From contig CM036764.1 in NCBI GenBank assembly GCA_020796225.1, positions 57,245,817 to 57,309,816 on the forward strand: a stretch of 64,000 nt of DNA, read 5' to 3'. This DNA comes from Arion vulgaris. Taxonomy: Eukaryota > Mollusca > Gastropoda > Stylommatophora > Arionidae. Shown one piece after another: positions 3,166 through 25,851 of this stretch (its first letter is position 1; each line of letters begins with the position of its first letter). A program made the translations under genes and the position numbers. The notes beneath the pieces were generated by a model, which searched no databases, was not told where the DNA came from, and saw only the letters and a program-made list of their open reading frames with translations.

Positions 3166-3319
3166 ATACAATTCAATGAAAGAAGTTGAAAATTTGCCCA
3201 AGATGGAGGTTAAAGATATTGCTTACAGGTCATGTAAAGTATAACAGTGAGATAAGAATGAAAACAATGAAAAATTTAAAAAATTTGCCCAAAATGGAGG
3301 GTTAAAGATTTGCTCTATG
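3165..3319 (+). repeat. 97-bp tandem repeat, left flank of the Polinton
   Basis: One full unit ('caattcaatgaaagaagttg...' to 'aacagtgagataag') is followed by a second, broken unit ending in 'gctctatga'. The same unit in the same orientation lies right of the element at 15,522-15,650. The Polinton therefore appears to have inserted into a pre-existing tandem repeat. The second unit breaks off at the inferred left boundary. Confidence 0.7.
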
Positions 3320-4265
3320 AATAATATCATGTTCCCTACATAAAATTAGGGCAAATAGTAAGGAGGAAGGATATACTCATAGTCGTTCCTAGTAGTCGGA
3401 TAGGAGCAACCCCAAAAAAGGGATTTACAAAGGGGAGATAATATTGGTTTATATAAGGGGAGATAACTTGTAGATTATTAACAGTGAGATGTTTTTTATT
3501 ATATAGGGGGGTACTTCCCCCCCATTTGGGGGGACTAATAGGCTTTATTAAAGGATATACGAATCCTACCACCCTTAATAAAAGTAATATACTCCAGAAA
3601 AAGTAATATATATTAGGGAGATTTTTTTGTTAAAAAAATCGAAATTTTTTTATTTAGATATGTATTATATAAAATTTTTTTTTGGAAAATCGAAAATTTT
3701 TTAAAAAATATTATATTTGTCAAATTTTTTTTTTTAATGGGGAAATATAAAAATCGATAAATTATTATTTTTTTTTTTTTGGGGGGATTTTTAAGGGTTT
3801 ACCATAAGCTATTTAGATATGAGAATATTTTTTTATATAAGTGTGTATGTGTGGTTGTATATATAAAAGGGAAGGGGTAAAGGGAAGAATTTATATGTTA
3901 AGGTATATGATAAGTATTACTTATGGGAGGGATGTGTATTTAGGTCAATATTTTAAAAAGCTCTTTTTTTAGCTTTGCCCATACCAGTAATTTACTATGG
4001 ATACATATATACATATACAAGGAGAGACAGGTATACATTTGAAAATAAAAAACCTTTTTGTGAATAAACGATATTTTTATTAAAATACATATATAGGATA
4101 TAAAAAACCTTTAAAAAAATGAAATTTTTCACCCGTTGTAAGGCTATAATACTAAACGAGAGGAAAACCCGACATATGATATATAAAAACGGTTGTGCGT
4201 ATATAAGTTAGCATTAACTAGCTATGGATCCTAGGTGGAAACATCCATTTACAGGGCTTATAGCG
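3320..4265. repeat. Polinton left terminal inverted repeat
   Basis: It matches the reverse complement of 14,466-15,521 through landmarks such as 'gtagtcggataggagcaa', 'ggatatactcat', 'ataagttagcatta' and 'actatggatcct' or close variants. The inner limit is where the two arms stop agreeing, near 'catttacag'. The left arm has many longer A, T and G runs (for example at 3,719-3,785) and is about 100 bp shorter overall than the right arm. Confidence 0.85.
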
Positions 4266-5110
4266 AGCCCAACCGGTAGCTGAAAAACCTTTTTTTGGCC
4301 CAAGTTTTGCCCCATCTACCTAACATTGTCGTCCCTACCCCAGATGAGATTATATTGTGTTACGAAGAATGGAAACATTACGAAAATATAAAGGGGTGCC
4401 CAATTTATCAAAGTTCTGCCAGATATGGACCAATGGGGGGGGGATAGCGGGGTTGTTTTTTTGGACCATCTAATGTCCGAAACAGGGAAAAATACCTAAA
4501 TTATTTACAAAAGGGTGTCACCATCGCAACATTAGCGCTATTATTGTAAAAACTTATTTGGAAAAATAAAGAACAACGGCAAGTTTAAATTCCTTACATA
4601 GTGTTTTTTTAAAACCCGCAGAGGCCCCAATTCCCAAACGGAACAGATGTACCTGGGGGGTATCATGTCCAAGAAAGTTTTAAAGACGCTACATCGTCAC
4701 TACATGGTTATTTGTTATTCGACCTTCGACAAAAACACCGATCAGTTGAGGTTGGTGGGATATTTTCCGACAAGAAAAATTTTTTTTCCGTCCCCAAGTA
4801 AAAGAATGGCCGAACTATGAAACAGACTGCGAAATGCTGCGATTCTTAGGTGGGGAACCAAAGGCTGTGAAGGCTATAATGAAAAAAGCTTCCATAGAGC
4901 TAGTACGAACGCTTTGTGAATGTTTTACAGCTTGTTAAAGGTAATGTTCCACTTACATCGGCTCAAAAACCGATTGGGGGGCATTAAAACAGTCTAAACA
5001 ATCACACAAAAAATTGTCCAAAAAAGGCAAAGAGATCCTTCAACAAGGCGGTTCATATGCGCTTTTTGAGTCATATATTAAACCCAAAAGGCGTTTGGTA
5101 GGTTAACCAT
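4266..5110 (+). pseudogene. Polinton-associated small ORF ('KGNVPLTS' protein), frameshifted
   Basis: A short basic protein with this motif commonly accompanies Polintons in invertebrate genomes; its job is not established. At about 4,896-5,060 the frames show 'ELVRTLCECF' followed by 'KGNVPLTSAQK' and a lysine-rich, heptad-like stretch ending 'KEILQQGG'. A premature stop lies between the first two pieces. The sequence at 4,280-4,890 may hold its N-terminus or another gene, but I cannot read it through the frameshifts. It lies just inside the left arm, before the integrase. The assignment is from memory of the family. Confidence 0.55.
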
Positions 5111-5560
5111 TGTAAGAAAATGCTATTGATTGATCCCCGTTTGCAGAGTCTATGAACAAAACAATACGCACCACCCCCACACCTTTAAAAGATAACCTAC
5201 GGGGTTTAGATGACCAAAAGCAAAAGTCTTAGAACGAGAAGATTTGTTGCGACGACAAAACAGACTGTATCTGCAAATGTTTCAGCCTTTTTAACTGTAT
5301 AGCTAGTACAGAAACAAGTCCCAGGGTTATTGAATCAAACCACCCCCACCTATCCCAACTAGTGAACATCAACAACTCTTACCGACAACCCCGTTACTTA
5401 AAGCTGAAGACGGACAAAGTCTTCAGTCGTCCCCAGGGTTGATATTTCAGACAAAGTAAAGAGACACCCCGGGTCTCCTCCAAATCTCTGAACGGGAAAA
5501 AGAAGAGAAGATTTCAACTCCCAAAAGGGGGGAAAAAGGTCCTCGAATAAGTACGATTTT
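5111..5560 (+). pseudogene. Second Polinton-associated small ORF, frameshifted
   Basis: This begins about 20 bases after the previous gene's likely end with a readable 'KKMLLIDPRLQSL' at about 5,117-5,155. A charged segment with 'LEREDLL' follows near 5,230. Invertebrate Polintons often carry a gene with an M-[VL]-[LI]-D-P-R opening and an E-R-x-D-L repeat between the KGNVPL gene and the integrase, and the order here fits. Function is unknown. Stops break it after the opening and again near 5,230. Confidence 0.45.
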
Positions 5561-5564
5561 TAAA

Positions 5565-6445
5565 AAATGGTACTTGAGCCGAATGGACCGGAGCGTATGG
5601 AGGGGGGTGGTTTAAGAGAAGCGGGAAAATTTTGTGCAAAGAATTAAGGAATGGTTTTCCCAGGATGGGATCTTACATAAAACCCGTGCGTAATTTTAAA
5701 AGACGCCCTACCGAACTGGGGGGAAAACCAACAGTTCCAAGCCCATCTAACGCCGAAATTGAAAGCACAATGACGGTTTTTATTAGGGGGTGTATAGGGG
5801 TATTCAGTAAATACGTGTGGGCGATTCCATAAAAACTAAAACGGGGGAAAAAATTTGGGGACCCATGGTATAACTTTTTCTGCGCAAACCATACATCTTC
5901 CCAGATAAAGGGTCGGGTTTTTCAACAAAACATTTTGAACTTTTTAAGAGGGGGGTACATTTTTACTACCGAAAACGATGACGTAAAAACCACTTGGGAG
6001 AGCGATTTAACAGGGCCTTGAAAGAAAACTGTGGCGGTACTTTTAAAAACCAACAAACTTCGATATATCCATGATGTCGACCGCTACACAACTACAATGG
6101 TTTGTATCATCAGATTCATGACCCAGGCATTAATATTGGAACCAAAAGCGTTTGGGAAAAGTATTTGACCCCACGTCATCGGAAAAAAGCGTTTAAAAAA
6201 GAGGATCGAGTCAGGGTCAGTCAAAAAACAACTTTTAAAAAGGGGGATACACCTGCGTGGGAAAAGGAAATGTTTTCCGTTAGTCGAGAAAAAAAACAAT
6301 GGTAACTAAGATTAAAGATGATTTGGGCTGAACGAAAAGGGTTCTTTTTTAAAAAAGGCTACAAAAATTCGCCACAAAAAAGTGTATCGAATCGAGTCGA
6401 TTCTAAAGAAGTCTATCATTGGCGTAAATAAAAGTATTTAGTTAC
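5565..6445 (+). pseudogene. Retroviral-type (rve) integrase of the Polinton, frameshifted
   Basis: Polinton integrases share the DDE fold of retroviral and Ty3 integrases and insert the element with a 6-bp target duplication. Readable pieces in order are 'KPVRNFKRRP' (about 5,678-5,708), 'GVFSKYVWAIP' (about 5,799-5,830, the core strand after the first catalytic Asp) and 'VWEKYLTPRHRKKAFK' with 'EDRVRVSQKTTFKKG' (6,150-6,245). The last is the C-terminal SH3/chromo-like tail typical of Polinton integrases. At least three frame changes separate them. I cannot place all three acidic residues securely. This is the clearest Polinton gene in the window apart from the protease. Confidence 0.8.
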
Positions 6446-7465
6446 GTGGTTTGGATATAACTCTACATTCAACAGTTGATTTCAAAAAATTCAAACCAGA
6501 TATGACGACTAGCGATAGGAAGCAAAACCGTAAAAAAACTACATCGTTTTGGAAAAGTAGGGGCAGGTTTAAAAACCCCCTTTTTTTGGGAAATTGCTTC
6601 CGCGACGAACCAGTCTTTATATTTAGATGGTGTTAATTGAGTCATCGGTGTATCATTTTTAATAGCACAGGGGTCCCACGGGGAAAAATTTGACAGTTCT
6701 TTTCAGGGCTGGGTTACATGCACCTAATCCTAAAAAGCCAAGACCAGCGATCAATCAACTGAGTTTTTTCGTCCCTTGGACAATGCCTCCTCTTTAAAAT
6801 TTTTCCAGACAACGAGCCTGGCCACTTTTTTTCAAACTACCTCAGACTATTGATTTATCATCGCAGTACAAATTCCTGGGGGACATTCAATTTCCCAAAT
6901 ACGTATTTTAACATTTTGGCGTGGGGTTTGGTTGAATATACACTATCCAAAAAAAAATGCAGAAAAGGTAAACAACCTATAATCATTATCGCCTGGTTTA
7001 AAATCACCAGAAAGGGGTTATCGATACGTTAAACAAATTGCTAATAGGATTCGAGGGTGGTGAGAAGCCCCTGGTTCCATTGGAAAAGGTGGGAAAAGGG
7101 GGATCTTAAAAATTTTTGAAAAAGGTGCCCAAGTTATCCTTATGACTGTTGACACATATTTTTTCTTTTCCACATCCCAAGATAAGATGCTAACCCAGTA
7201 GTAGAAGGGGGAAATTTTAAGTAAACCAGAGCCAAAAAAAAATTGGTGTACTTGACCTAGTAGCCCCTCGAAAGTCGGAACGTTATGGTACCCTATTACG
7301 CACTGTTCCTATTTTGACAGGCTTCGGCGTCAGCATTTCGTATTTATGACAAACCCCTACGGGCGTGAGTTTTTTTTTTTCGACACTGTAAATGTTTAAC
7401 CAACGATATGGGAAAACTATCCCATTCAAGGGTGGGGAAGTCGATAACGTTATATTTTTTCCCCG
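6446..7465 (+). pseudogene. Penton/fibre-like Polinton structural protein, frameshifted
   Basis: Many animal Polintons carry a protein of this type between the integrase and the pVI-like gene, and it is thought to be a virion surface component. The clearest piece is 'TIDLSSQYKFLGDIQFPK' in one frame at about 6,846-6,900. Polinton homologues have a 'P-x-T-I-D-L-...-E-I-x-F-P' segment here. The C-terminal part, near 7,400-7,450, matches the usual T/N-D-x-G-x-P-I-P-F...ending only loosely and across frames. The first 350 bases are uncertain. Role and boundaries are inferred from gene order plus this motif. Confidence 0.5.
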
Positions 7466-7885
7466 AAAAAATTTTGATCTGGAATAAAAATAGTGAGGCG
7501 CCCGTTACCCGGGGAAATCCTGAGCTTTCGAAAACTTTTTCTGTACTCGCTGGAACGGGTTCGGGGTTTTTAGGTGGGGAAGTCAACAGGGTGATTGGGA
7601 GTTTCTTTGGGGGGTTTTGGGGCCCTGGTTCTCCGGGTTAAAGAAGGGGGTAAAGCCTTATTAGGGGAAAGGGGTAGGTACTGGTTTAAAATTGCCCGGA
7701 TGCTTTGCTGGTAGGAAATTGGGACTCATTTAAAACCACCCAAAAAACGGGGAAAAATATGCCAAGGTCCTCACCACTGGGTAACCAATCAGGTAGTGGA
7801 ATTAGAAGGAAGTTGAATTTTCCCCCCAGGGGGAAACCCCTTTTTAAAAAAAATAAAACGGAATGCCCAGCCTCGTCAACTCATT
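7466..7885 (+). pseudogene. pVI/minor-capsid-like Polinton protein, frameshifted
   Basis: A glycine-rich opening, 'GTGSGFLGGEVNRVIGSFFGG' in part at about 7,552-7,612, leads into a lysine-rich, Gly/Ala-poor C-terminal region ending near 7,885. Polinton minor capsid proteins resembling adenovirus pVI/pX start with a G-x-G-[IVL]-G-[SG]-[FL]-F-x-x-L-F stretch and end in basic repeats. Several indels break the basic part. It lies immediately upstream of the capsid gene, the usual Polinton position. The assignment is moderate and from pattern memory. Confidence 0.5.
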
Positions 7886-9080
7886 AGAAACTCAAGACCA
7901 ACCAAAACGGATTCGGATATTTTGAATAATTCCTATACCCCCAACTCGGAATGTCTTCACTCTGGTTTGGGGTTTATTTGAAAAACCCCCCAAACAGCCG
8001 GAGGAGGGTCGTTTTTAGAGATAATCCCGCTTCTTAAGCCGCAAAACCCGGATGTAGGGGGAACTTTGGGTCTTTTTAATACCTTTCTGCACTCGAGCCA
8101 AAGTCACCTTACGTAAAGGGGGCAAAATTTCCTCCAGATCAAGTCGCGCCCGTCAACTATTAACATAGCTTATTTTTCAAGTTGACGTTTCCCAAAAACG
8201 ATAATTTTTATCACTTTTGAAAAAAACAATTGACTACTTTGGGAAGGGCGTTGAACTAGGGAAGGGAAAAAGGACATTTATCTCCTCCTTTTTCCCCAAC
8301 CCAAAAGATTGGCGCGCAGGGGGATGCTAACCGGCCAAAAAAACGCCAAAATTGGGCAATAAATTAATATGATGGTCGTTTTTCATCGGGAAAATTTGTC
8401 CCAAAACCGCTACATGCTAAAGGGGTTGATGAAAAAAATTTAAAATCACACCTTTAAAGACGTATTCAAACTTATTGCACAACCCTGGGTTGGGTTAAAT
8501 AATTATAACCCCTGCCCGGTAGTTTGAAAAGCCCCAATTTAAACTGGCTATTTCCCCAGCCCACGAGAAAGCGCAACAATTAATAACGCCAAGACCCCTT
8601 AAAAAGGGTTTTAATTAAAAAACAGCTATTTTAAAAAGGGAAAGTTATCGCCCCAGGGAAAACCTTTCCCGAGTCAAACTCCCCCCCGCGTGTGGTTTAA
8701 ATAAAACGACGGCCTTTTTCGGTTCACAAGGCAAACCTTCAACTTCCCAAAAATTTTGACATTTTAACTTTCCATTGATGGTGGAGTTTTAAGGGGAAAA
8801 AACTAACGATGGACTTTAAAACAAACATACTTAGGCTTTTTTGTATAAACGGGGGTGGGGCTGATTGGGAAAGGACGCCAAAAGGGGTTGGGCAATAGAA
8901 ACTTTAAGAATGGTATCTTGAGCCTTTTTATCGCCCAGTCTTTGCGGCGATCATTAGATTTAAAACAGGTCCCCTTGAAAATGGAAATTAAATTGCTGTT
9001 CGTTTGACAAACTGCGGTTATAGTTTAGCTGAACAAGATGCCATTCTCGAAATTTTTAAAACACCAAGTTTGTTTTATTG
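7866..9080 (+). pseudogene. Polinton major capsid protein (double jelly-roll), heavily frameshifted
   Basis: The gene would encode the hexon-like double jelly-roll capsid subunit. Recognisable pieces follow the order of Polinton capsid proteins. An L-F-x-x-F-L-H-S-like segment lies at about 8,065-8,100. A C-terminal block at about 8,700-9,050 includes 'NKHT' (8,821-8,835), 'PSLCGDH' (8,936-8,956) and the 'KMEIK' environment near 8,980. These fall in different frames with many stops, so no intact domain can be read. The span of about 1.2 kb is near the 1.3-1.5 kb usual for the family. The capsid identity is inferred from these blocks and from its place between the pVI-like and protease genes. 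Confidence 0.55.
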
Positions 9081-9082
9081 TC

Positions 9083-9535
9083 TTAAACGGAAAATGAAAA
9101 ATAAGTAGTACGGATAATTCTCGCCGACCTTTTTTTTCTTTTGTTGTAAAATCTTTCCTTGCATAAAATTTCTACCATATTGATCGAAATAAATCTGCTT
9201 ACATAGTAAAAACGATTACAGAAACCCGGGGCCCTTGGGTGGGTTTTTATTACGATTAGGGCGATTTGAAAAATTTGATTCATTTGGCCTACCACCCACC
9301 ACTGATATTACACATTTTATCGAACATAACTCCCCTAACCTTTTTTACAATCCCCCTGTTTTACAAGACATTTTTAACACCTGGGACGCGCTTTTATTTC
9401 ATAAAATTAAGGCTCAAGATTTAAAAATTTCTAGCTTCTCCTACCGTTTTCCCCCCTCACATCGAAGTAATCAACATATAATGTTCTCGATTATTGTTTT
9501 TCAAAACCAGAAATGTTTTGATTGTTGAAACAAGT
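9083..9535 (+). pseudogene. Adenain-like cysteine protease of the Polinton
   Basis: Adenain-like (C5/C48-clan) proteases process capsid precursors in adenoviruses and are a standard Polinton gene. 'KSAYIVKTITET' (about 9,189-9,224) precedes a damaged catalytic-His region. 'FEKFDSFGLPPTTDI' (about 9,266-9,310) is the F-D-S-[FY]-G-x-P-P block that contains the active-site Asp in this family. The catalytic Cys region would lie near 9,440-9,530, where frames shift and the motif 'S-x-x-C-G' is not visible. The family's usual length (130-200 aa) fits the span. An early in-frame stop lies just after the likely start. Confidence 0.7.
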
Positions 9536-11190
9536 CACGTATCTAATGACCGCACCACTGGTATAAGAAAAAATCTGTGGATCGAAAAGGTGTTTTCCCC
9601 GAAAGATGCTTTCAGCTCCAACCAACTGGGGATACATGACAGAGGCGTAAATGTTTAAACCCTGAAGGTTTCAAAGTTTCAACTGTACGGGTTTTAGAGG
9701 ACACAAAGTTATTTGGCCCTTCTTTTGGGGAGTCTGAACTAAAATTTCCTCAAAGTCGGTCTTTCATGAATCGTCGGGGTTTGAAAAACCGTCACTTCAA
9801 CGGATACTCCGAATTTGGACACAGCAGCAAAAACAGCTAACAAAAGCACAACTTGTTCTGCCATGCGTGCAACTAACAAACACCCACAAACGTGAGTAAC
9901 CAGACGTTGTGTTACGATACCACCAACTACCAACTCTTCTACAACGTCAGCCGGTTAATCCTATAAACAAACAGAAAAAAAAAACCCCGTGAAACTTACT
10001 AACATCACAAAGTTCCCGGGCCCATGATAAACAAACTGTTCCAGTCGACAAAAAGCCCCAAAAAGTCTCGCAAACAAAAATATGAATATAAATGTTGGGT
10101 GTTGCTTTTTCGATGTTGTAAAAAAAATTTTATAAAAACCCAAAAAAAAATTTTTCCTTGCAATTTATTTTTGGTGTATACGGTTGTATTTAAAAAGTTT
10201 AATTTTTCTATTTTGAATGTATTTCCCTTACCCTTTTCTTTTTCAATTGTTTTTCCAAAAACAAGTTTGAACTTGTTTGTGCAAAAAAAGAAATTGGCAA
10301 ATTTCAAAGTTCCCCTGTTGTCAAATAAAACTTTGTTCCCAAAATGAGTTTATCGACAATTTTAAAAAATTTTCCCTTTTCAAATATCCATACAACAATT
10401 TTCAAGAAAATAGTCATAAGTGAAAACAGGGTGGCCCAATTTGAGCATAAATTAAAAATATAACCGAATTTATCATCATCGCTTTTCTAACATATAACGA
10501 ATTTCGAGAGATATAGGCGTGTTATATTTTATATTCCCTTTTTTATGAATCGCTGCGGTATATAAAAGTTTTGGGGTTATCAGAATTATTTTCGGGTAGG
10601 GATAAGGGCACTTTTAGACCAAAGGGAAAAAAACTACGAATATTCAACAAATAAAACAAAATTCAAATGTAAGTTTTTTTTTTTTATTTAAACAACATAG
10701 TTTTCCCCAAAATTTTAAAAAAGACAAAACCTTGAGGTAGTCCACCTGTCTCGAAAAAATTTTTCGAATGCATCCCAGCCCCTTGTTTGAAACCACGTAC
10801 CTACTTGTCACCAATGTATTTACCAACAAGAAAGACATTTTTCAGGTTCATCAACGTTTACACTACGTTGTAGAATTAGCAATCAGATGGTTACCAGATG
10901 AAAAACCCAAGGCACAGCGACTATCCGTCCCCATTTTAACGACCATCTTCCAAAACCATCCTCCCATGAGGAAAAACCGGTGGTGGGGAGGCTTGCGTCT
11001 CCAATGATACGGAAAGGGGGGAACTTATGTTCCCCGGGAAAGGGTTTCCGGGGGTCACTGGGAGGGGACAGACGAACATGGCCCCGGTCCCCCAGGTTGG
11101 GGGTTGGGGATAAAGATCCCATCCTTTAAAAAAAAAAGGGGAAACAACAACAAACATACAACCCATCTACGGGTAACCCCAAATCATTGC
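9536..11190. other. Unassigned Polinton interior
   Basis: This stretch lies between the protease and the nested LINE and is full of homopolymer runs. Open frames up to about 107 codons exist on both strands (for example 10,024-10,347 +), but none shows a PolB YxDTDS motif or a GxxGxGKT ATPase motif that I can see. A Cys/His-containing patch near 9,850-9,920 (+) could be a PolB N-terminal remnant, but this is weak. Confidence 0.5.
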
Positions 11191-11299
11191 TCACATGACT
11201 GGAAGTGGTGAAAACCAAAAGGGAAACTCTTTTTGAGGACGGAAGTCCTAATGCCAAAAACCCAAAACCAGAATTGAGTGGGAAAGTAAGAACAATGTA

Positions 11300-12010
11300 C
11301 GAAACCGAAAAATATCACAAATAAAGCAGAAATGGGAAAATATAATCACATATCCTAGGGGGGTTAAGGGGCAATGGACAGGAAATGGAAAATCCACTGC
11401 AACAGGTGAAACAGTCCTTTTTTTTGGACGAGACGATGACCTACACCATGAAGGAGTAGCATTAATCCTAAGAAAGGGCGTGGAAAAGTGTCTGTTAGAA
11501 TGGAAACCTATCAAGCAGCCGCTTGATTAAGATCAGGCTAAAGGGGAAGCATACAAACATCACAATCCTACAATGCTATGCGCCAACTAATGATAGCGAA
11601 GATACAAAGAAAGACTCGTACTACGAAAACCTACAAGCAGAATTGGGACAAGTCACCATCCCATGATGTTATCATTGTTATGGGAGATCTAAATGCGAAG
11701 GTCGGACAAGACAACACGCATAGTTATAGAACTATGGGAAAATATGGATGTGGTATGATGAACGAAAATGGGGAACGTTTAGTAAACTTCTGCAGCATGA
11801 ACAACCCTGTATAGGAGGAACCTATTTCAACATTTAGATATCCACAAATTAACATGGTATTCCCCTAATGGCAGAGAAAAAAACCAAATAGACCATATAA
11901 TTATCAATGGACCCTGGAGACGCTCGCTGCTAGATGTTGTAGTCAAGAGAGGTGCAGATGTTGGTAGTGACCACCACCTAGTCACAGCTTATGTCAAACT
12001 TAAACTAAGA
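11300..12010 (+). pseudogene. APE-type endonuclease domain of the nested RTE, frameshifted
   Basis: This domain nicks target DNA to prime reverse transcription. Readable pieces are 'GRDDDLHHEGVALILRKG' (about 11,427-11,480), 'DVIIVMGDLNAKVGQD' (about 11,663-11,711, the G-D-x-N-A-x-V-G metal-binding block), 'NQIDHIIINGPWRRSL' (about 11,885-11,930) and 'GSDHHLVTAYVKLKL' (about 11,965-12,007), which holds the terminal S-D-H active-site motif. At least two frame changes break the chain, one near 11,520 and one near 11,815. All key motifs are present, so the damage is recent or artefactual. Confidence 0.8.
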
Positions 12011-12764
12011 AAAACAGGACAACAGAAAACTTCCAAAAGAGGTTCGATGTGGATAGACTAAAAGACACGGAAGTAAGGGATAAGTTTATAATGCAGATAA
12101 AGAAAAGATTCCAAGCCCTAGAAAGTAATGAAACTACGGATGAAACTGACAACATAGATAAAACATGGGACAACATAGCATCTATATATAGCAAGAGCAG
12201 TGAAAATGTCTAGGCTACGCACAAAGAAAAAAAAGAATGGATAACACCAACAACATGGAAAATAATAGACAGCCGAAGAATATTAAAAAGAAATTGTTAG
12301 AAGCAAAGTCCGAAAGACTGAAAGCAAGATACCAAGAACAGTACAAAAGCGCAAGTAAAGAAATCAAACGGGCTGGAGAGCCGACAAAGAATGTATGTTG
12401 AAGACCTGGCAGTACAGGCAGAAGAAGCAGCAAAAAGTGTGATCAGGGAACAGTGTACAAAATTACAAAGCTAATAAGAGGGAAACATTACAGAAGATCA
12501 AATACCCCATAAAGGATAAGAATGAATACTATTGACAACGGAAAAGGAACAAGAAATACGATGGACAGAGCATTTTAAAGAATTGCTAAACAGACCACCT
12601 CCAACGAGTAGAGCAGACATACCAGAACCAACAGAGGAGTTAGAAATTGGCATTGAAACACCCAGCCAGGATGAGATCATTACAGCAATTAAATCTCTTA
12701 AGAATAACAAGGCACCAGGGAATGATAACTTTAAAAGCAGAACTATTCAAAATAGACCCAGAAC

Positions 12765-13943
12765 TTGCAAACTAATAATTGCAACCCTTGTTTACTACTA
12801 TATGGAATGCCCAAAATACCTGATGCATGGAAAGGGGGAGTCATCATCAAGATACCCAAAAAAGGGCCCCTTGCCGATTGTAATAATTGTGGAATAACAC
12901 TGCTTTCTGTCCCAAGTAAAATCTTAAGCAAAATCATCGTACAACGTATTACTGACGCTGTGGATAAGAAACTGAAAAAGGAACAAGCAGGATTTCGCAG
13001 AGGACGGAGCTGTATAGGCCAAATATTTGCTCTTAGAAATATCATAGAACAATGCAAAGAATGGCAAAGCAAACTCTATATCAACTTTGTAGATTTTGAA
13101 AAGGCTTTTGATAGCATACACCGCGAAAGTCTATGGCGTATCTTAAGATGGTATGGAATCCCACTGTGTTTTATAAATATTATAAAAAGCTGTTACAGCA
13201 AGTTTGCATGCAGTGTTGAAACTTCAGAACTAAAGTTTGAAGTAAAAACAGGCGTGCGACAAGGATGTGTTATGTCAGCCCTATTATTCAACACTGTCAT
13301 AGATTGGGTGATGCGTAAAACAACGGAAGATAAGGCAAGAGGTATGAGATGGACGCTCACATCCACTCTGGAAAACCTAGATTTTGCAGATGACATCGCA
13401 CTCCTATCTCATACAAATAGAGATATCCAGGAAAAGACCAGCCGCCTTAACCAATATAGTGAGATGGTTGGGCTGAAAATAAATCAGAAGAAAACTGAAG
13501 TAATGACTCTGAACATAGCAACCCCAGCACCAGTCAAACTAGAAGGTAAAACCCTTTCCCAGATACACCGCTTTCCTACCTTGGAAGTGTTATTTGCAAT
13601 GAAGGAAGGGGCTGGATCTGACATTAAAAACAGACTGAGTAAAGCACGCAGTGCATTCATGACCCTTCAGACAGCCTGGAAATCTGCCCAATACAGCATC
13701 AGAACCAAGACTAGTATCTATAACAGCTGTGTGCTGGCAACTTTGCTGTATGGAGCGGAATGCTGGAGAATGACAGAACAGGATATGTCCAGACTCTCCG
13801 CCTTTCATACAACTTGTCTGCGAAAAAACTTACCCCGTACTGGCCGACTACTATCTCGAATCAAGAATTGCTTGCACGATGCCAACAAGAGAATATGGAC
13901 ACTATCATCCGAAGACGACGCTGGAGATGGATTGGGCATGTGA
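12765..13943 (+). CDS. Reverse transcriptase core of the nested RTE LINE
   Basis: The reverse transcriptase copies LINE RNA into DNA at the nicked target. This open frame of 392 codons holds the RT palm motifs in order: 'FVDFEKAFDSIHRESLW' (motif A, first catalytic Asp), 'VKTGVRQGCVMSALLF' (motif B) and 'FADDIALLS' (motif C, the catalytic Asp pair in its F-A-D-D form). A thumb region with 'LKINQKKTEVM' follows, and then 'LLYGAECWRMT'. The frame starts inside the protein at a convenient Met. The true polypeptide runs in from about 12,000 in other frames and continues after 13,943 with a frame change. It is the longest intact transposon frame in the window. Confidence 0.85.
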   Translation: MQTNNCNPCLLLYGMPKIPDAWKGGVIIKIPKKGPLADCNNCGITLLSVPSKILSKIIVQRITDAVDKKLKKEQAGFRRGRSCIGQIFALRNIIEQCKEWQSKLYINFVDFEKAFDSIHRESLWRILRWYGIPLCFINIIKSCYSKFACSVETSELKFEVKTGVRQGCVMSALLFNTVIDWVMRKTTEDKARGMRWTLTSTLENLDFADDIALLSHTNRDIQEKTSRLNQYSEMVGLKINQKKTEVMTLNIATPAPVKLEGKTLSQIHRFPTLEVLFAMKEGAGSDIKNRLSKARSAFMTLQTAWKSAQYSIRTKTSIYNSCVLATLLYGAECWRMTEQDMSRLSAFHTTCLRKNLPRTGRLLSRIKNCLHDANKRIWTLSSEDDAGDGLGM

Positions 13944-14240
13944 TGCGCATGGAGACTGGCCCGACACGAAAACTGCACTGAGATGGACTCCAGAGGGTAG
14001 GAGAAAGCGTGGAAGACCCAAGACGACCTGGAGGAGAACGATAGAGCAAGAGCTGAAGGAAATGAATCATAGCTGGAACACAATACAGAGGAAGGCCATG
14101 AATAGGGAAGAATGGTGTACGTTTGTTGCTGCCCTAAACGCCAGGCGTAAAGCAAAGAGAGAGAGAGAGATCTTCCCAAGACTTGATCCGAAATCTCTAC
14201 AAAAGATTCAAATACATCTCGGTGATTCGTTTCATTAACC
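13760..14240 (+). pseudogene. C-terminal region of the nested RTE pol, frame-shifted
   Basis: 'IIRRRRWRWIGHVMRME' (about 13,904-13,955) and 'GRRKRGRPKTTWRRTIEQEL' (about 13,998-14,057), followed by 'WCTFVAALNARRK', are the standard C-terminal blocks of RTE-group proteins. They are basic and probably bind nucleic acid. They occupy two other frames than the RT core. The last frame stops near 14,238. Confidence 0.75.
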
Positions 14241-14465
14241 AATCTACTGAAAAACAGAACGTACGTATTTGAAAGTACTGTAACTAAACGTTCAAGTGTT
14301 TTACAATATATATTTTTAGTACCACTACCATATGACGGGATTATATATATTGCCATTGTTATTGCTTCGAGTTGAACTCCCGACAATGAAACGCCCTCGG
14401 TTTCGGTCATGCTGGTCATTAAATAAAGCGTATAATGTGGTGAAAGAATAACTGTATACTTTTGG
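14241..14465. other. Polinton interior right of the nested LINE
   Basis: No motif was recognised in this short stretch up to the inner edge of the right inverted repeat. Confidence 0.5.
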
Positions 14466-15521
14466 CCCCCGCATAAGCGCTGTAAATGAATGTTTCCCCC
14501 CAGGATCCATAGTATTAATGCTAACTTATATACGCAGAAGTTTTATATATATCATAGGCCGGGTTTCCTATTGGTTAGATATACCCTTTGCAACGGGTGG
14601 TGGCAAAGTTTCACTTTTAATGTTACTATTATATCCTATATATGTATTCCAAAAAAAATATCGTTTATTACGCTAAATACGTTTGTTATTTGCAAATGTA
14701 TACCTGTCTCTTCATGTATATGTATATATGTATCTATAGCAAATTACTGGTTTTGCAAAGCTAAAAGTAGCCCTTTCAAAAATGTTAACCTAAATACAAC
14801 AGACCCTCATTAGTGAATACTTAACATATACCTTAACATACCTAAATTCTTCCCCTTTACCCCCTCCCATTTTATATACACAAACACACATACACACTTA
14901 TATACACAAAATATTATGTCATATCTAAATATAGCTTATGGTAAACCATTTAAAATCACACCCCCCAAAAAAAAAAAACATAATAATAATTTATCGATTT
15001 TTATATTTCCCTATTAAAAATAAAATTTTACAAAAATAATCGATTTTTAAAATATTATCGATTTTCCCAAAAAATAATTTTTTTATATATAACTACATAT
15101 GGTACATATCTAAATAAAACAATTATCGATTTTCAACTAAAATTATCTCCCTTTATATATATAAAATAAATATATAAACCAATAGTTATCTCCCCTTAGT
15201 AAATCCTTCATGCTTTGCTGGGGTATATTACTATAAAAGCTATATTAAGGGTGGGTTAGGTCGTTGATATCCTTATATAAGCATATTAGCCCTCAAATGG
15301 GGCTTAAGTACCAATATATAATAAAATCATAAACCCCCTTTTAATAATCTACAAATTATCTCCCTTATATAAACCCATAGTTATCTCCACCTTAGTAAAT
15401 CCTTCTTTGTCTTTGCTCCTATCCGACTACTAGAACGATTATGAGTATATCCTCCACTCCTATCACTATTTGCCCTCATTAGCACCTCATTTACTACATG
15501 TTTCCTTCCTACCTTACTACT
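14466..15521. repeat. Polinton right terminal inverted repeat
   Basis: This is the reverse complement of the left arm. The inner edge is at 'ctgtaaatgaatg' and the outer edge at 'ccttactact'. It is cleaner than the left arm, with few homopolymer runs over 6. It has an internal direct duplication of the 'atagttatctcc...ttagtaaatccttc' segment at about 15,182-15,212 and 15,386-15,414. AT-rich microsatellite-like patches lie near 14,880-14,900. Confidence 0.85.
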
Positions 15522-15650
15522 TCTATATAATCTATAACAGTGAGATAAGAATGCAATTCAATGAAAGAAGTTGAAAATGTTGTCCAAGATGGAGCGGTTA
15601 AAGATATTGCTTACAGGCTCTATGTAAACTATAACAGTGAGATAAGTAAA
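15522..15650 (+). repeat. 97-bp tandem repeat, right flank of the Polinton
   Basis: A partial unit ('tctatataatctataacagtgagataag') is followed by a full unit ('caattcaatgaaagaagttg...' to 'aacagtgagataag'), in the same orientation as the left-flank copies. The left flank ends in 'ctctatga' and the right begins 'tctatata', which fits a duplicated 5-6 bp target. Confidence 0.7.
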
Positions 15651-16955
15651 CAATAAGAACGTTTCCCTTTAAAGATGCAAGTTTGTCTATTATCTTATTA
15701 GTACAAATATATACATGTCCATTATAGTGTATACATGAAATACTTTGTAGATTGTAACTTACTAAAGATTACACTCACAGATAGAACAAAAGGGGAAACA
15801 TCTGTTTTATACATTTCTATACAAGGCCTGAGAGTAAAGCACGATATATGGGTCAAAGGCGCAGTCAAGAGACAACGATGCGCCAGGTTTAGAGAGCTGG
15901 CACTAATCAAGATCCTGCCCCACTTCCATGTGGTGACCTGGAAACAGATATAGCATCCCGTTTGGCTATGGGTAAGGATCGAGGGAGAGCTACTTCTGTA
16001 TAGGTAGTGGTGCAAGAGCAGTCACGTTATACGAGATCTACTCGCAACACAGACGAACACAAAACCCAGAGTCACTGTTTTTGCACGTTCTCCCGGGCCC
16101 TTGGGAAAAGGTAAACAAATAAAAACGAATCGTAAGAATTGACAAGGTACAAGTCGTCAAGAGACACCCCCCCTAAACAATATGTTCGCCCGAATTTTCC
16201 AGCTTTCGGCAAGAGTCGTCCGAAAACATTCATGTGACGACACAAGGAAAGATTCAGTAAACTCCGATCGAGACCGAGCGCAAATGCATTTAATGTGTAA
16301 AGGTTGACCGAGTGTAAATCCTAAAGTTGGTTCTTTGTTTAACGGAACTGCTCACGTGGAGCAATCGGACACGGTGCTGTTGTAATAACAACTAACATCC
16401 CCGGAAGAACTGGAGCGGGTGATGTTGGCGAGCGCAAAATTTCAGTTGTGTTGTTAGCGCTGAATGAATAGACTTTTCTAGAATATCTGTGGGCGGCCCC
16501 AGTTCAGTGTTTCTAGGGGAAAAGGGAAAATTCAGGTAGACATTGCAAATTGCTAAGTACCACACGTGCATTGAAACCGACGAGAAAACTCCTTTTCAGG
16601 AATAAACTCACCGTGGATAGAAAAGTAAGGTTGTAAATATATCGGCTTGACTTGTACACATTCGAGCATTGGAGAAGGGCGATACTTTTGGGTCGCCGAG
16701 CATCCTACACAGAGTAAGATATCCAAACATTATGGCTCAGATCATATAAAGGACAATTAAACAGCTCAAAAATGATCGTTTATGTGACAATCCCTCATGC
16801 GTCTCCAATGACAGAGAATGTTCCTAATCCGGAATGACCTCACATAGTCAAAAAGGACGCCTACTATAGACATACTCTTAGGCTAAGATCATACAGCCCA
16901 AATATACGGCGAATATGATCTTTAAAAACCAATGAATACAAGACAAGTGACCATT
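15651..16955. other. Unassigned DNA
   Basis: GC content is higher than in the neighbours and open frames are short (for example 15,722-16,015 -). No recognisable protein motif or repeat was seen. It could be the 5' part of the Penelope-like element that becomes readable at about 16,960. Confidence 0.5.
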
Positions 16956-16959
16956 CCAA

Positions 16960-17960
16960 TGACCAGCCCTAGAAGGGTTGAGAAACCGGAATGACCTAGT
17001 CCAGTCAACTCTGACAGGGTGAAACTTATCTTAACTTTCCACCCGCATAGTTCCCTTGTGAAGAAAGTTTTATTCCGTCATCTCTCTAGTCTTCAGTCTG
17101 ATCCTGAGACACGTTCAGTCTTCCAACACTATCCTTAGGTGGGGTATAGACGGAACAGATGTCTATGTCTTAAGGATATGTTGGTACACAGTCGCATTAA
17201 GTCCAATATCTAGTCATTTTGGCATGGTCCAGTGGCTGTCGGCGCTGCAATACGTGTGCTTAGGTGATACAGACCCGTACTGTATCTTTCCAAATGCCAC
17301 GTTTGTTATTGAAGATTGTTTAACATGCGAGTCCCGTGATATTATCTACACCATCACTTGCAAGCGGTGTGATAAGGCTTATATTGTTGAGACAATCAAG
17401 AGGCTTAGTGACCGATTAGACCAACACTTGCGCTTTATACGCCAATGCTCCGTGACCCATGTAGTCATTTCCATGATACTGACTATTTAGGAGCTTGCGA
17501 TGTCCAAGTTACAGTCATCCGATCATGTTCCTCTGACGATCGTAGTCGATTTGCTCTGGTCAATCGTTTTTTTTAGTTGTATCATACCTTGCGATCACAT
17601 GGACTCAACGCACTACAATCCTATGCTTCTTCGTACTTTCTCTTCTCATGCCTTGTATTCTATATGAGTATATGTTCCATGTATATAAGTTATATATTTA
17701 CATAATTTTGTAAAATTGTTTCTCTTCTTTTCCACTTCTAGTTTTTGTGTGTGTTTGTTTGTGTGCATTTATTTCTGTTATTCTTTTTATTCCCAGATTT
17801 TCACTAGGAACATTTGAATGTATTCGTATGTAATAGTCCATGTGTAGTGTTCTTTGTAATACTATTCTCAGATGTGACTGATCGTCGCTGTGTATCTCTG
17901 CCTCACCTATTTTCAGATGTGACTAGTGAATACTCTGAAACAAATGTACTTAAACCTTGT
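16960..17960 (+). mobile_element. Penelope-like element fragment 1 (RT end plus GIY-YIG)
   Basis: Penelope-like elements join a telomerase-related reverse transcriptase to a GIY-YIG nuclease. 'DRVKLILTFHP' (17,015-17,048) is the RT-end block written D-R-[IV]-P-L-V-L-T-[FY]-H-P in better copies. A GIY-YIG segment lies at 17,299-17,440: 'CESRDIIYTITCKRCDKAYI' then 'RLSDRLDQHLRFIR', where the usual Y-I-G-E-T has become Y-I-V-E-T. About 70-80% of the sequence by eye matches 23,700-24,500. Frameshifts occur upstream of 17,224. Confidence 0.7.
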
Positions 17961-17989
17961 TTGATAGTTTTAGACTGAAGAGATACAGC

Positions 17990-18475
17990 TATGAGTTTTG
18001 AAGCCGTGCTATTGTAAATGGCGTAATTGTAATATGTAGAGCAAGTTATTCAGTGCTACATAGAACCAATACTGATATACGGATGCGAATCATAGACAAT
18101 AAACAAAAAGTTCGAACAATCTCTGGAGGTTACAGAGATTTTATTTTACAGAAGAATGATGAGAAAACCATGGACTGCTAAAATCAGTAATGTTGAGGTC
18201 TTGAATGAGGTCAAGACACTTATCATCAATATAAGAAAGAGGTAGTCATCATTTTTGGGGCATTTGATGAGGAGGGGAGGTTTAGAACACATGGGCAACC
18301 GGTAAAATCAAGGGTACACGAGACAGAGGAAGACAGAGAGAGAAAATGTTGGATATCCTGACTTCATGGCACGGTAGAGCGTCAACATCTGAGTTGATAG
18401 CAAACACCAAAGATAGAGATGTGTGGAGATCATTGATCGCCTACGCCAGCCGGCACGGCACCTGATGATGATTAT
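17990..18475 (+). mobile_element. LINE-Z 3' end fragment
   Basis: The nucleotide sequence tracks 41,690-42,145: 'catagaaccaatactgatatacgg', 'ttttacagaagaatgatgag', 'gacagaggaagacagagag' and 'gatcgcctacgcc' up to 'cggcacggcacctgatgatga'. It encodes the decayed thumb and C-terminus of the pol protein, ending G-R-H-G-T-stop. The tga-type microsatellite tail is typical of this group. It is a dead, truncated copy. Confidence 0.7.
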
Positions 18476-18600
18476 GAGAACAGGTGATACTTCAAAATCA
18501 AACCGATGCCAGTGACAATTGCAATATTGTTAATATTTTAAAATATAGTTTTTAGTTATAATTATGTTGAGATCATGCAGTATATACTCACATTCAACTT

Positions 18601-18801
18601 TCAGAAATGCATGACTTTATCTTTCAATTTCTCTCCTAACCAGCAAAGTCTATTATGCAGCTTTGTAGTTCCAGTATCGTCACAAGTAGCATCAGGCACA
18701 TATATCTCAATCTTCATTGTATGAACATCTGAAAGCCAGCGTTGGGTGGAGAGAAAGTCATTTTCCAACGTCTTCCTTGAGGAATGTACTAAAGTATTCA
18801 C
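18601..18801 (-). pseudogene. Truncated Ig-like exon resembling the exon at 62,911-63,105
   Basis: Antisense translation includes 'MKIEIYVPDATCDDTG', close to 'LKIVLRVPEATCDDTG' of the 62.9-kb exon. In Ig V/I-type folds the D-x-G-x-Y-x-C pattern follows; here the Y-x-C part is lost and the frame runs into unrelated residues and a stop. An acceptor-like 'actttag' precedes it at about 18,788-18,794 on the antisense strand. It looks like a broken duplicate of an Ig exon. The FREP/VIgL connection is a resemblance only. Confidence 0.5.
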
Positions 18802-18894
18802 GATTCAGGAATAACAGAGTAAAAACCGAAAAAACAAAAGCAAACTATGACTCTGAAATTTTAGCCACAGACATTCGAAAATAACACATATGTA

Positions 18895-19160
18895 GTAAAT
18901 CTGCGCCCGTGTGGTTCCAGGACCGATAAGGGAAGCAAGCAATAGTACCACTGCGATGTGCCAAGGCATGTCGTAAGAGGCGACTGATGTAGAGCCTAGG
19001 AAGCTACCTGGTAAATAAATAAAGAATGCAGAAATCGGATGCTGACCTACTAGTGTGTGAAAAAAATAGAACAACGTATACTGCTCTGGGCTCGATCAGA
19101 TACAAATCACAGAGCATTAATAAGCAGTCGATATAGAGCATTCGAAGAACAAGATACCTA
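18895..19160 (+). mobile_element. SINE-B (subfamily B1) copy
   Basis: It carries the core 'catgtcgtaagaggcgactg', then 'gcctaggaagctacctggta' and an 'aaatcggatgctgacctact' segment. It ends near a 'gcattcgaagaa' tail. Other copies lie at 38,335 and 61,145 (+). The 5' end ('gtggttccaggaccgataag') is tRNA-like in position but too worn to identify boxes. Confidence 0.7.
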
Positions 19161-19634
19161 TAGTGTTTCAAAATGCTTTTCCATGTACCGAATATCTCTG
19201 CAACCGCTTGACCGTAATTGTTGTAACTTTGCATATAATCTAATGATCGTAATGTCCTGAGGTTTATAATTTTACTCAATAACAAACGTATGGTTTAAAA
19301 ATTTTCTTTATGTAAAGTATATAAAAAGACCATCTCCTTAGCCAACCATAATGAGAAGTATTACCCCTTCATATTTGTGAGATGCTGTGCGTTCCACGAC
19401 TTTGCACGTTTTGCAGGTGGTTTTCCTGATTTGAATCGCTTTATCGCACTTCTTTAAAAAAATGTATAATGATCTTTCCGGTGTGTTTAGTTACAATTTA
19501 CCGTTTGTGTTTTCAGAGCATAGGTGTATTACAAAAAATATTTAGTATTCTAGATTTTTATAATGGGTATGAAAATCAAGTTCTTACACTGCATACAGTG
19601 TCTGTGAAAATGTATAAATATTTTATCAGAGAAT

Positions 19635-20845
19635 CTAATCGTGGAAAAATCAGATCGGAGTATATCAAATCCTGAACAGAGAACTATGCATGCTTTGGGC
19701 TTAAGTAAAGATATCTACATAAATTGCACAATGTTAATGAGTTGTCAGTACAGTCAATACATTGACTCATGCAGAAAGAAAGAAGTAGATAATTTTGACA
19801 GGGATGTGATTAGAAGAGAAATTTGCAGAATGTTCGATTCCAAAGAAACTGTGACACTAAGAAAGCTGAAGATTAGGTTAAGAATACACAATGACATTGA
19901 TGTATCGAACTAACGTTATGGAGAACTGTTAGAAGCATCGGCTTTACTTTAAGGAAGTACGCTAATGGGAGAAATGTCATCTGCGAGAAGCCGATTTAGC
20001 ATGTCTGAGAAGTAAATATTTACGTGAAGCGGCGGAAATGTGTAATCAAGGTTACGATATTGCGTATGCGGATGAAACCTGGACTCAATGCTCACCACAC
20101 TAATGAAAAGGAGTGACAGCGGTCCGATGGAACAATTGAACGATATGTACCAGTGGAAAAGGACGTCTGATAATGGCACATGCAGGCAGCAGACAAAAAT
20201 GGGTTAAAGATGCTGAACTTATTTTCACTTCCAATTATACGGACAATAGGAACTATCATACCGAGATGAACGGTAACATATTTAGAGATTGAATTGAACA
20301 TACTCTTCTTCCGTCCCTAGACATAACAACATCCTGTGTGATAATGAATGTAACGCATCATACCACAACACTGTCAGAAGAAGACAAAATCCTGATATCT
20401 TCTAGTACAAAAGATGCTATATAAAACTTTGGCTCAGAAAGGAGAACATTCCATTTAACGAGGGGTTTTTGAAGCCTGAATTACTATCTATTGTTAAAAC
20501 ATCACAGAAGACCAGGGTATTCCAAACAGACAAGTTGATTCAACAGCATGGTCATGTGCTTGAGACTACCACCTTATCATTCACACTTAAAACCCAATTG
20601 AACTCATTTGGGCCAAAGTTAAAGGACTTGTAGCAGCTGAAAATAAAACTTTCAAGCCAAGCCAACATGAAAGAATTAATATATTCCGCCCTGTCGAATA
20701 TAGACAGAGATTATTGGTGTAAATGCGAAGACCATGTTCAAAGGAGGAAAATGACTACTGGGACAAAGATGGACTGTCGTTCGTTCAGCCAAGAATAGTC
20801 ATCATTACAAGTTAGACTCATCGGACTCAGAATAAGTGAGTAAAC
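19635..20845 (+). pseudogene. IS630-Tc1-mariner superfamily transposase relic
   Basis: DDE transposases of this superfamily cut and paste DNA transposons. The N-terminal region 'DNFDRDVIRREICRMFDSKE' (19,790-19,850) is the helix-turn-helix/linker type seen in animal relatives. 'YADETW' (20,054-20,071) carries the first catalytic Asp. 'GRLIMAHAGS' (20,161-20,190) and 'NRNYHTEMNGNIFRDW' follow. The second-Asp region reads 'VIMNVTHH' where relatives have V-x-M-D-N-A-x-Y-H, so that catalytic residue is lost. The third region, '[LT]-x-N-P-I-E-L-I-W-A', is damaged near 20,590-20,620. Multiple stops and frameshifts; non-functional. No inverted repeats were identified. Confidence 0.65.
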
Positions 20846-21139
20846 ACTTTATATGATTTATATAATATGAGTTATCTCACCCTCCAAAATTCGAATTGTA
20901 CGCCTATGCCGAAAATATGTGATTTTTAAATTTACGGTAAATTATTTTCTTCCAGCACCAAATAATTACTAGGATTGAAAAGATCAAAGGAATTCGCCGT
21001 TGCTAGAAAAGTACACTACCTGCAACATTGAATTTTAGAAAATCGTTGGGACATCGGAAATACAACACCACATGCAAAAAATCACGTTCATCCATGAAAT
21101 GAATATGGAGATATTTGAGGTCAATCGTTACCGACTGTT

Positions 21140-21320
21140 TTGAAACGCACTATAGTAAATATAACTATAGTTCGTTCCAAAATTCGCGATCACATCAAAG
21201 TTTAATTTACGAAATCTACATGATACAAACTCTAGTAAATATAATTCATAGTTCGTTCCAAAATTCCAGATCACACTAAGGTTTAATTTGTACGAAATCT
21301 ACCTGATGCATACCAGTGAT
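21140..21320 (+). repeat. Two-copy tandem duplication, about 90 bp
   Basis: 'tagttcgttccaaaattc' followed by 'gatcacat' or 'gatcacact' and 'gtttaattt...cgaaatctac' occurs twice in tandem with about 10-15% divergence. Confidence 0.75.
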
Positions 21321-21439
21321 ATTTTGCAAGCAGTCTTATATACCTCACGACCTTGCGAATACATGTTTAACTACTTGGTAGTTAGGCTAGTTGATGCTTT
21401 TTTAAATATAATTTCAGCAAGCACAACACAATGATCATC

Positions 21440-22705: not shown

Positions 22706-22709
22706 GTAA

Positions 22710-23395
22710 TACACAAATTGGTGGCAAATGTTTGCAAAGGCGTATCCTCATTACATATTATTAAAAGAAAGGTGACATAGGTGAACAAATGATACCTTCC
22801 ACTTCTATAAATGAAAGTAAATGTTGCGTACATACGATAATGATAGTCAAAGTGAAACATTGTGAACTGATTAACTCCACGGATCCTGATTCTTTGTCTT
22901 GCACTGAATTGATGTGGAACACCGACATGCTTAATTATAGACAAACTTGACAATCGTAAAGTAAAATTTCGACAAGTATACCATATCAACATGGCAGCAA
23001 TTTTAGTAATAACATAATAAAAATCTTACAGAACTAAAGGTCAGATGAGCAAAAACATTTCTTGGAAGGTCGTCACTGTTACTCAAATGAAATGCAAAAA
23101 TCAAGAATTAATGTCTAGTGGATGATTTTTTATCGGTCTGTAACGATGATAACGAATTTTGGAAAGAGGAAGATATATAGTAAATATAACTATAAAGGTT
23201 AGATATGAAGAAAACAACATATCTGCTGATGCCGTGCACCTTGCGTAGAATAGTAGTTTTCAGTTCAACAGATACATTCATGACTGTATTGGCATTACTG
23301 ATATGCCTGAAGCAGATTTATCACGATTCATAAATTCCCCCATTAATATTTTCAACCTTCTATCTGCATTACTTCTCACATCTCCACTACTTGTA
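22710..23395. other. Unassigned AT-rich DNA
   Basis: No gene or repeat was recognised between the antisense LINE and the second Penelope-like fragment. Confidence 0.55.
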
Positions 23396-23399
23396 TGAA

Positions 23400-24665: not shown

Positions 24666-24784
24666 ACACACATTTCGATTCTCTTACAATTCATCATCAT
24701 GATCAAGTAGCTTGTCCTTCCGGCTCTTGACTCAGATGACAGCTGGATTTTGAAAACTCTCTATTCTGTGCAAGATGCATGACG

Positions 24785-24995: not shown

Positions 24996-24999
24996 GAAT

Positions 25000-25850: not shown

Positions 25851-25851
25851 T

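What the first reader, a model, noticed from the sequence alone, without database searches (positions are those of the whole stretch)
3320..15521. A Maverick/Polinton with arms of about 1 kb in a probable mollusc genome
Inverted arms at 3,320-4,265 and 14,466-15,521 enclose integrase, capsid-type and adenain-protease remnants on one strand. Polintons link DNA viruses and transposons, and each well-bounded copy helps show which host lineages carry them.
Basis: partly seen in the sequence, partly recalled or inferred. Interest (0 to 1): 0.8.

Follow-up and report, generated by a model that had tools for sequence, protein, structure and literature searches.

The report
Polymerase-less Maverick-type virus with Bcl-2 gene
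A virus-like mobile element buried in a snail-like genome carries capsid, integrase and cell-death-blocking genes but no DNA polymerase, and some sister copies keep only the small protein thought to start DNA copying, so it probably spread with borrowed replication machinery.

Summary
In detail: 3,320-15,521 is bounded by inverted arms and an imperfect 6-bp target duplication. Maverick/Polinton morphogenesis genes are detectable inside: packaging ATPase, rve integrase with chromodomain, double-jelly-roll capsid, minor capsid, adenain protease. So are a PC4-like gene and, on the other strand, a Bcl-2 homologue split by a 3.2-kb LINE. Much of the 'decay' is not biological: window 1-12 kb is a poor consensus.

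The surprise is what is missing. No DNA polymerase was found in this copy or in 25 other stretches (about 23 insertions in all). In eight insertions the polymerase's N-terminal zinc-finger plus presumed terminal-protein (primer) domain survives as a separate gene, ending with TAG at the presumed terminal-protein/OTU boundary. Its dN/dS is 0.56 (0.42-0.74), like the capsid genes; two outside proteins (40-43% identical) end at the same residue. The window belongs to a second subfamily whose right end was replaced by an inverted copy of the left end, losing even that gene, yet it is found at about seven places.

Likely reading: a Polinton-derived, helper-dependent satellite. The genome-wide search for a helper polymerase did not complete.

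The parts
3314..3319 (.). left target-site duplication TCTATG (5 of 6 with the right one)
   Evidence: sister copy C3 has a perfect 6-bp duplication TACAGC
3320..4265 (+). left inverted arm; its inner end carries the ATPase start codon
4218..4798 (+). packaging ATPase (A32/FtsK-HerA type), frames broken
   Evidence: tblastn 1e-24 with L018 piece; that piece hits Pox_A32 1.5e-5
5009..5591 (+). conserved Polinton ORF between ATPase and integrase (ORF2; called PZ here by position)
   Evidence: tblastn 2.6e-22; homologue in contig L022
5614..6509 (+). rve integrase with C-terminal chromodomain
   Evidence: tblastn 7.6e-17 and 5e-14; pieces hit rve 5.1e-11 and Chromo 3.9e-9
6734..7484 (+). minor capsid (penton-like) protein
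   Evidence: tblastn 1.8e-24; weak fold match to mavirus minor capsid from a low-confidence model
7495..7971 (+). PW/pVI-like small protein (named by position)
   Evidence: tblastn 2.7e-15
7940..8992 (+). major capsid protein, double jelly roll
   Evidence: tblastn 1.8e-7 and 1.5e-5; 522 homologues; model of relative P0002 matches mavirus MCP 6g44 at 1.5e-14
9038..9523 (+). adenain-type cysteine protease
   Evidence: tblastn 4.6e-13; piece hits Peptidase_C5 7.4e-5
9606..10015 (+). PC4-like gene
   Evidence: tblastn 6.7e-15; piece hits PC4 2.5e-5, 24.1 bits, just under the 25.0 cut-off
10694..10956 (-). Bcl-2 homologue, 3' part
   Evidence: tblastn match 11,074-10,694 at 1.6e-6, trimmed by me at the LINE breakpoint
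10957..14169 (+). nested non-LTR retrotransposon with reverse transcriptase, about 12-bp duplication (10,945-10,956 / 14,170-14,181), antisense to Bcl-2
   Evidence: RVT_1 5e-34; absent from the sister insertion L013
14170..14496 (-). Bcl-2 homologue, 5' part
   Evidence: tblastn 4e-54; sister piece hits Bcl-2 1.2e-16 and PDB 6wgz, Bcl-2-like 4, at 4.2e-12
14466..15521 (-). right inverted arm, extended by a copy of the left end including the first codons of the ATPase (type A end)
15522..15527 (.). right target-site duplication TCTATA

Best explanation
The element is an endogenous, compact Polinton-lineage virus that has lost its DNA polymerase. SHOWN: it keeps a morphogenesis set and an integrase, plus Bcl-2 and PC4 homologues; none of about 23 insertions looked at shows the polymerase body; subfamily B keeps only the zinc-finger plus presumed terminal-protein (TP) part as a separate gene ending in a stop at what looks like the domain boundary; subfamily A, to which the window belongs, lacks that as well and has its right end replaced by an inverted copy of the left end; both subfamilies are found at several places, with coding constraint among copies. 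INFERRED: it replicated as a linear protein-primed DNA. In subfamily B its own TP would prime at its own arms, and the polymerase came in trans from a polymerase-bearing relative or a second genome segment. It was packaged by its ATPase into its own capsid, cut in by its integrase with a 6-bp duplication, and used the Bcl-2 homologue to delay host-cell death. In short, a helper-dependent satellite of a Polinton.
For: Same gene order, with deletions in some, in the window and 10 sister copies. With the PolB of contig L022 (DNA_pol_B_2 2.9e-9) as query, no match beyond its residue 235 at E 1e-3 in 26 stretches, while its N-terminus is found in several of them at E down to 1e-21 and a polymerase fragment in L024 at 3e-34. 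TP gene in 8 insertions; TAG at the same place at 8 of 8 junctions seen, from 7 copies, in frame at 7. TP dN/dS 0.56, codon bootstrap 0.42-0.74, 0 of 1,000 at 1 or more. P0121 and P0122 end at the same FPIG. Type A junction the same in 10 of 10 stretches. MCP, INT and BCL2 ratios 0.44, 0.37, 0.60. Perfect 6-bp duplication and AGTAGTA ends in copy C3.
Against: No helper polymerase was looked for genome-wide: the PF03175 request did not complete 34 times. Only 40 of 365 arm candidates were scored, so polymerase-bearing members may exist among the rest. The 15 stretches reach at most 10 kb from one arm. Sensitivity in the window itself is poor: of seven other L022 genes only the ATPase was found there, so its lack of PolB rests on the sister copies and on want of room. 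Contig L023, otherwise canonical, gave no PolB match either, so the query may miss divergent ones. The TP reading rests on position and a published model, not on a fold of my own. The TP frame is itself interrupted in most copies, and its middle piece alone does not exclude neutrality (0.44-1.21). The ratios mix constraint with decay and use non-independent pairs. Virions, expression and transposition were not tested.
Confidence: 0.6

Rival explanations
1. Internal-deletion derivatives of an autonomous Polinton in the same genome: A and B are MITE-like passengers mobilised by full-length relatives; the TP piece is a leftover.
For: No polymerase in the copies examined while the arms are kept; arms not exhaustively scanned; TP frame interrupted in most copies.
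Against: A leftover should not stop with the same TAG at what looks like a domain boundary, stay constrained (0.56), or share its end point with 40-43% identical outside proteins. The virion genes are kept and constrained, unlike in MITEs.
Confidence: 0.25
2. A bipartite virus: the vOTU-exonuclease-palm part of the polymerase sits on a second linear segment with similar arms.
For: Stand-alone TP with a clean end; some bidnavirids have several segments and a Stylophora polinton has a separate TP gene (passages of PMC11071296 and PMC11071308).
Against: No second segment seen among 26 stretches; not testable while the genome search was down.
Confidence: 0.12
3. An ordinary dead Polinton whose polymerase was lost after insertion and overwritten by the LINE.
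For: LINE inside the element; no long open frames in 4.3-11 kb.
Against: The LINE interrupts Bcl-2, not a polymerase, and no polymerase was found in sisters without the LINE. Broken frames are largely poor consensus.
Confidence: 0.03

Closest known systems
Maverick/Polinton elements (vertebrate set, PMC8097293, passages read)
   Same: (AGT)2-type ends, 6-bp duplications, ATPase, rve integrase, minor capsid, MCP, protease; PZ and PW matched by position only
   Different: no polymerase found; about 9-10 kb without inserts, against 15-25 kb typical (passage of PMC6431247); Bcl-2 and PC4 genes; TP as a separate gene or absent
Adintoviruses (PMC11071296, passages read)
   Same: integrase with C-terminal chromodomain and a related-looking capsid; that paper says most mammal-associated members appear to encode anti-apoptotic homologues and/or candidate oncogenes
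Stylophora polinton with split TP (PMC11071308, passages and section 7 read)
   Same: TP encoded by its own gene
   Different: there the vOTU-polymerase part is still present; here it was not found
Polinton-like viruses and virophages
   Same: double-jelly-roll capsid (mavirus MCP match); virophages show dependence on a helper
   Different: per PMC11071308 PLVs mostly lack pPolB and rve integrase and carry other replication proteins; here rve is kept and no replicase was recognised

Membership tests
Maverick/Polinton | terminal inverted repeats with AG(T)-type ends | tested here: met
   in the window the left end is degraded to AATAATA
Maverick/Polinton | 6-bp target-site duplication | tested here: met
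   six insertions with both ends seen: C3 perfect, window, C16, C10 and C22 5 of 6, C1 none; the ends of the other copies were not settled
Maverick/Polinton | rve integrase | tested here: met
Maverick/Polinton | packaging ATPase and adenain-type protease | tested here: met
Maverick/Polinton | double-jelly-roll MCP | tested here: met
   on relative P0002, 74% identical:
Maverick/Polinton | single-jelly-roll minor capsid | tested here: inconclusive
   homologous to the corresponding ORFs of L022-L024; model pLDDT 54, weak matches
Maverick/Polinton | protein-primed PolB | tested here: not met
   none beyond residue 235 at E 1e-3 in 26 stretches; four chance-level matches at E 1.2-4.4
Adintoviridae | PolB with OTU-like domain plus Hexon plus integrase-chromodomain | tested here: not met
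   integrase-chromodomain met; PolB/OTU not found; reciprocal BLAST with adintovirus Hexon not done
Bcl-2 family | Bcl-2 core domain | tested here: met
   PF00452 1.2e-16 over the full profile; PDB 6wgz 4.2e-12, both on sister piece L013
Protein-primed terminal protein (D1) | D1 fold and priming residue | not testable with these tools

The most novel reading that the evidence does not exclude
An animal lineage of helper-dependent satellite Polintons: viruses that keep their capsid, integrase, an anti-apoptotic Bcl-2 and their own protein primer as a separate gene, but live on another element's polymerase. From it arose a second-order satellite (type A) that also gave up the primer by copying its left end onto its right.
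Probability: 0.4. Interest if true: 0.8.

Novelty: new variant of a known kind. Interest (0 to 1): 0.62.

Why it matters
Polintons are called self-synthesising because they bring their own protein-primed polymerase. A multiplied, constrained family without it asks who copies it, and would be an animal counterpart of the virophage way of life. A TP gene that ends at the TP/OTU boundary, kept under constraint without the polymerase, would be independent natural support for the recent structure-based claim that this N-terminal domain is the primer. The right-end replacement is a trace of how linear genomes may renew their ends. The window also shows how a bad stretch of assembly can pass for ancient decay.

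Tried and rejected
Six-frame Pfam on 4,201-7,102 of the window: nothing relevant, because of sequence quality. PF00770 six-frame genome search: nothing, but its controls also rang nowhere, so no evidence of absence. IMG/VR for MCP and TP: none. Bcl-2 piece against 5.8 billion proteins: 130 candidates, none at E 0.001. Papers: 'F54H12.2' 0 hits; Polinton with Bcl-2 gave 3 papers, and in the one I opened, PMC6431247, the Bcl-2 sits in the section on planarian Gypsy elements (passages); one search returned 48,433 papers and was useless. Starrett 2021 and Jeong 2023 are not held. I cannot claim that polymerase-less Polintons are absent from print: searches gave listings only, and I read passages of four papers (PMC11071296, PMC11071308 with its section 7, PMC6431247, PMC8097293). 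I first thought the C15:29.6 Mb copy (L026) a fold-back like C7 (L030): L030 is (inverted pairs 311-874/4,822-5,385 and others), L026 shows no inverted pair in its first 5 kb. Rejected: PolB overwritten by the LINE; loss in the window only; an intron after PIG in these copies (TAG follows with no GT donor).
Full report
1. Observation. The arms at 3,320-4,265 and 14,466-15,521 are real inverted repeats, with a 5-of-6 target duplication TCTATG/TCTATA; the right end is of AGTAGTA type, the left degraded to AATAATA. The window is the last 64 kb of contig C12 of a 1.52-Gb, 3,227-contig assembly. The left arm has 84 reported matches there, a lower bound since only 40 of 365 candidates were scored, and many pair up as inverted arms several kb apart.

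2. Sequence quality. Six-frame Pfam on 4.2-7.1 kb finds nothing relevant. The sister insertion at C12:48.08 Mb (L013, L041, L042) shares the right flank: 95.5% over 14,170-15,708 and 95.6% over 15,709-25,672, with homology continuing to 35.6 kb. Over 5,848-10,956 it is only 81% identical, with 614 gap columns. There 354 of 429 mismatches are window bases equal to a neighbour, against 75 for the copy (controls 37:36, 74:73, 64:58), and 536 bases are missing against 64 extra; homopolymer runs are in excess over the first 12 kb. The part right of the LINE leans the same way, but with few differences (24:7 of 33). So window 1-12 kb is poor consensus, and the two places hold the same insertion, allelic or duplicated.

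3. Genes. Open pieces from sister copies hit Pox_A32 (1.5e-5), rve (5.1e-11), Peptidase_C5 (7.4e-5), PC4 (2.5e-5, just under its cut-off), Bcl-2 (1.2e-16) and Chromo (3.9e-9). The minor-capsid, PW and MCP pieces hit no relevant Pfam family. The MCP piece has 522 homologues, the best named ones from Pomacea 68%, Littorina 66%, Plakobranchus 61%. The model of the 74% identical relative P0002 (pLDDT 75) is a double jelly roll matching iridovirus, PBCV-1 and mavirus capsids. The minor-capsid model is poor (pLDDT 54). tblastn lays the genes out in the window as ATPase-ORF2-integrase-minor capsid-PW-MCP-protease-PC4 on the + strand and Bcl-2 on the - strand, the same order as in 10 sister copies apart from deletions. 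A LINE (RVT_1 5e-34) sits inside Bcl-2 at about 10,957-14,169; L013 lacks it, which gives a duplication of about 12 bp.

4. The missing polymerase. In contig L022, filed in a bacterial MAG of an Escarpia (tubeworm, recalled) endosymbiont and probably animal contamination, a 1,409-codon frame with DNA_pol_B_2 (2.9e-9) lies directly upstream of the ATPase. This PolB finds nothing beyond its residue 235 at E 1e-3 in 26 stretches; up to E 10, one search lists four chance-level matches (E 1.2-4.4). The 26 are the window, ten sister copies, and 15 stretches reaching at most 10 kb inward from unpaired arms. Controls: a PolB fragment in L024 is found at 3e-34; L022's ATPase finds 10 and its MCP 11 of 13 sequences (the window and 12 loci of the ten copies), integrase 8, minor capsid 8, protease 7, ORF2 4, PW 4; in the window itself only the ATPase is found. 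L023, canonical in gene order, gave no PolB match. So sensitivity is limited, most of all in the window; but there the ATPase begins inside the left arm, and only about 0.7 kb separates PC4 from Bcl-2, leaving no room for a polymerase. I count about 23 insertions, treating L013/window, L017/L009 and L039/L018-19 as pairs on flank or tree evidence.

5. Type B. Eight insertions (L010, L011, L030, L031, L033, L034, L035, L037) keep the zinc fingers and the following domain of PolB between Bcl-2 and the right arm. The piece stops where L022 runs ...HPIG|CVDIT... into a stretch (DNLCFFRC) that I take for the OTU domain (recalled motif). TAG follows at 8 of 8 junctions seen, from 7 copies, in frame at 7; L011 is shifted just upstream, and L031 was cut by its stretch. 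The last codons lie in the arm, so some copies read PLV instead of PIG. The frame is interrupted elsewhere in most copies. Three sub-pieces over 8 copies give dN/dS 0.49 (0.32-0.74), 0.73 (0.44-1.21) and 0.53 (0.32-0.93), together 0.56 (0.42-0.74); MCP 0.44, Bcl-2 0.60, integrase 0.37. Over more copies the other genes lie at 0.45-0.62; an earlier smaller set gave 0.43-0.97, with the minor capsid at 0.97. Since the cut is shared, the constraint should post-date it. Of 47 candidates of suitable length in 5.8 billion proteins two matched, P0121 and P0122, and both end at FPIG; whether a stop follows there I could not see. PMC11071308 (section 7) assigns the N-terminal D1 domain of such PolBs to the terminal protein that primes replication.

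6. Type A. The window, L009, L013, L014, L015, L016, L017, L018-19, L020-21 and L039 (7 insertions) show no TP. Their right arm runs on through a copy of the left end into the first codons of the ATPase and joins Bcl-2 at one junction, the same in 10 of 10 (L017, of poor quality, lacks a few bases). One event is therefore likely, followed by further insertions. Gene trees mix A and B, mostly with weak support. The remaining 8 stretches (L025-L029, L032, L036, L038) could not be typed. C7 (L030) is a fold-back of two right ends. Arm-to-arm substitution is 1.9% in C3 (inner part), 4.3% in C16, 4.2% in C8 and 5.9% in C1.

7. Mechanism. Shown: gene content, no polymerase in the copies examined, a separate constrained TP-like gene, replaced ends, several insertions. 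Inferred: linear protein-primed replication with a polymerase supplied in trans; end renewal by copying one end onto the other (A, fold-back C7); packaging and integration by its own proteins; Bcl-2 as a death blocker. Not known: the helper. The genome search for PolB did not complete.

8. Known or new. The parts are known kinds, and anti-apoptotic genes and split TPs are in print. A polymerase-less, TP-keeping, multiplied Polinton lineage I did not find in the listings and passages seen. Because PolB was tested and not met, I do not file it as a Polinton or adintovirus proper but as a Polinton-derived variant.

Noticed in passing
window 64000: The window ends at the end of contig C12; the last 400 bases hold no telomere-like repeat by eye.
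   Followed up: partly
window 15,709-35,589: About 20 kb match C12:48.09-48.11 Mb at 90-96%, while the left side of that place matches other parts of the window inverted: an allelic or misplaced duplicate near the contig end.
   Followed up: partly
window 47,885-54,678: Large 45-bp minisatellite with strong G-over-C skew (0.5-0.6).
   Followed up: no
window 26,742-26,798 and 56,191-56,248: Similar short repeats in opposite orientation (GGCTCGGTG... / ...CACCGAGCC), perhaps ends of a small transposon.
   Followed up: no
window 56,692-59,820; 21,790-22,377; 41,623-42,135: Further LINE-like endonuclease/RT reading frames, judged by eye.
   Followed up: no
L016 (C1:52.2 Mb): A 19-base sequence CACCTGGCAACCACTCTGT lies inverted (one mismatch) just outside both element ends and there is no target duplication: a longer arm or a nest in another element.
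   Followed up: no
L021:2980-3555: A DDE-transposase-like frame (LNPIELVWAKVKG, recalled motif) lies inside the PC4 gene of the C12:4.18 Mb copy.
   Followed up: no
L036:2561-6872: In the C2 copy the minor-capsid/PW block is repeated about four times in tandem.
   Followed up: no
L022, L023, L024: Polinton contigs filed in MAGs titled as two marine symbionts and a Breoghania, probably animal contamination. L023 gave no PolB match: another candidate without polymerase, or a divergent one.
   Followed up: partly
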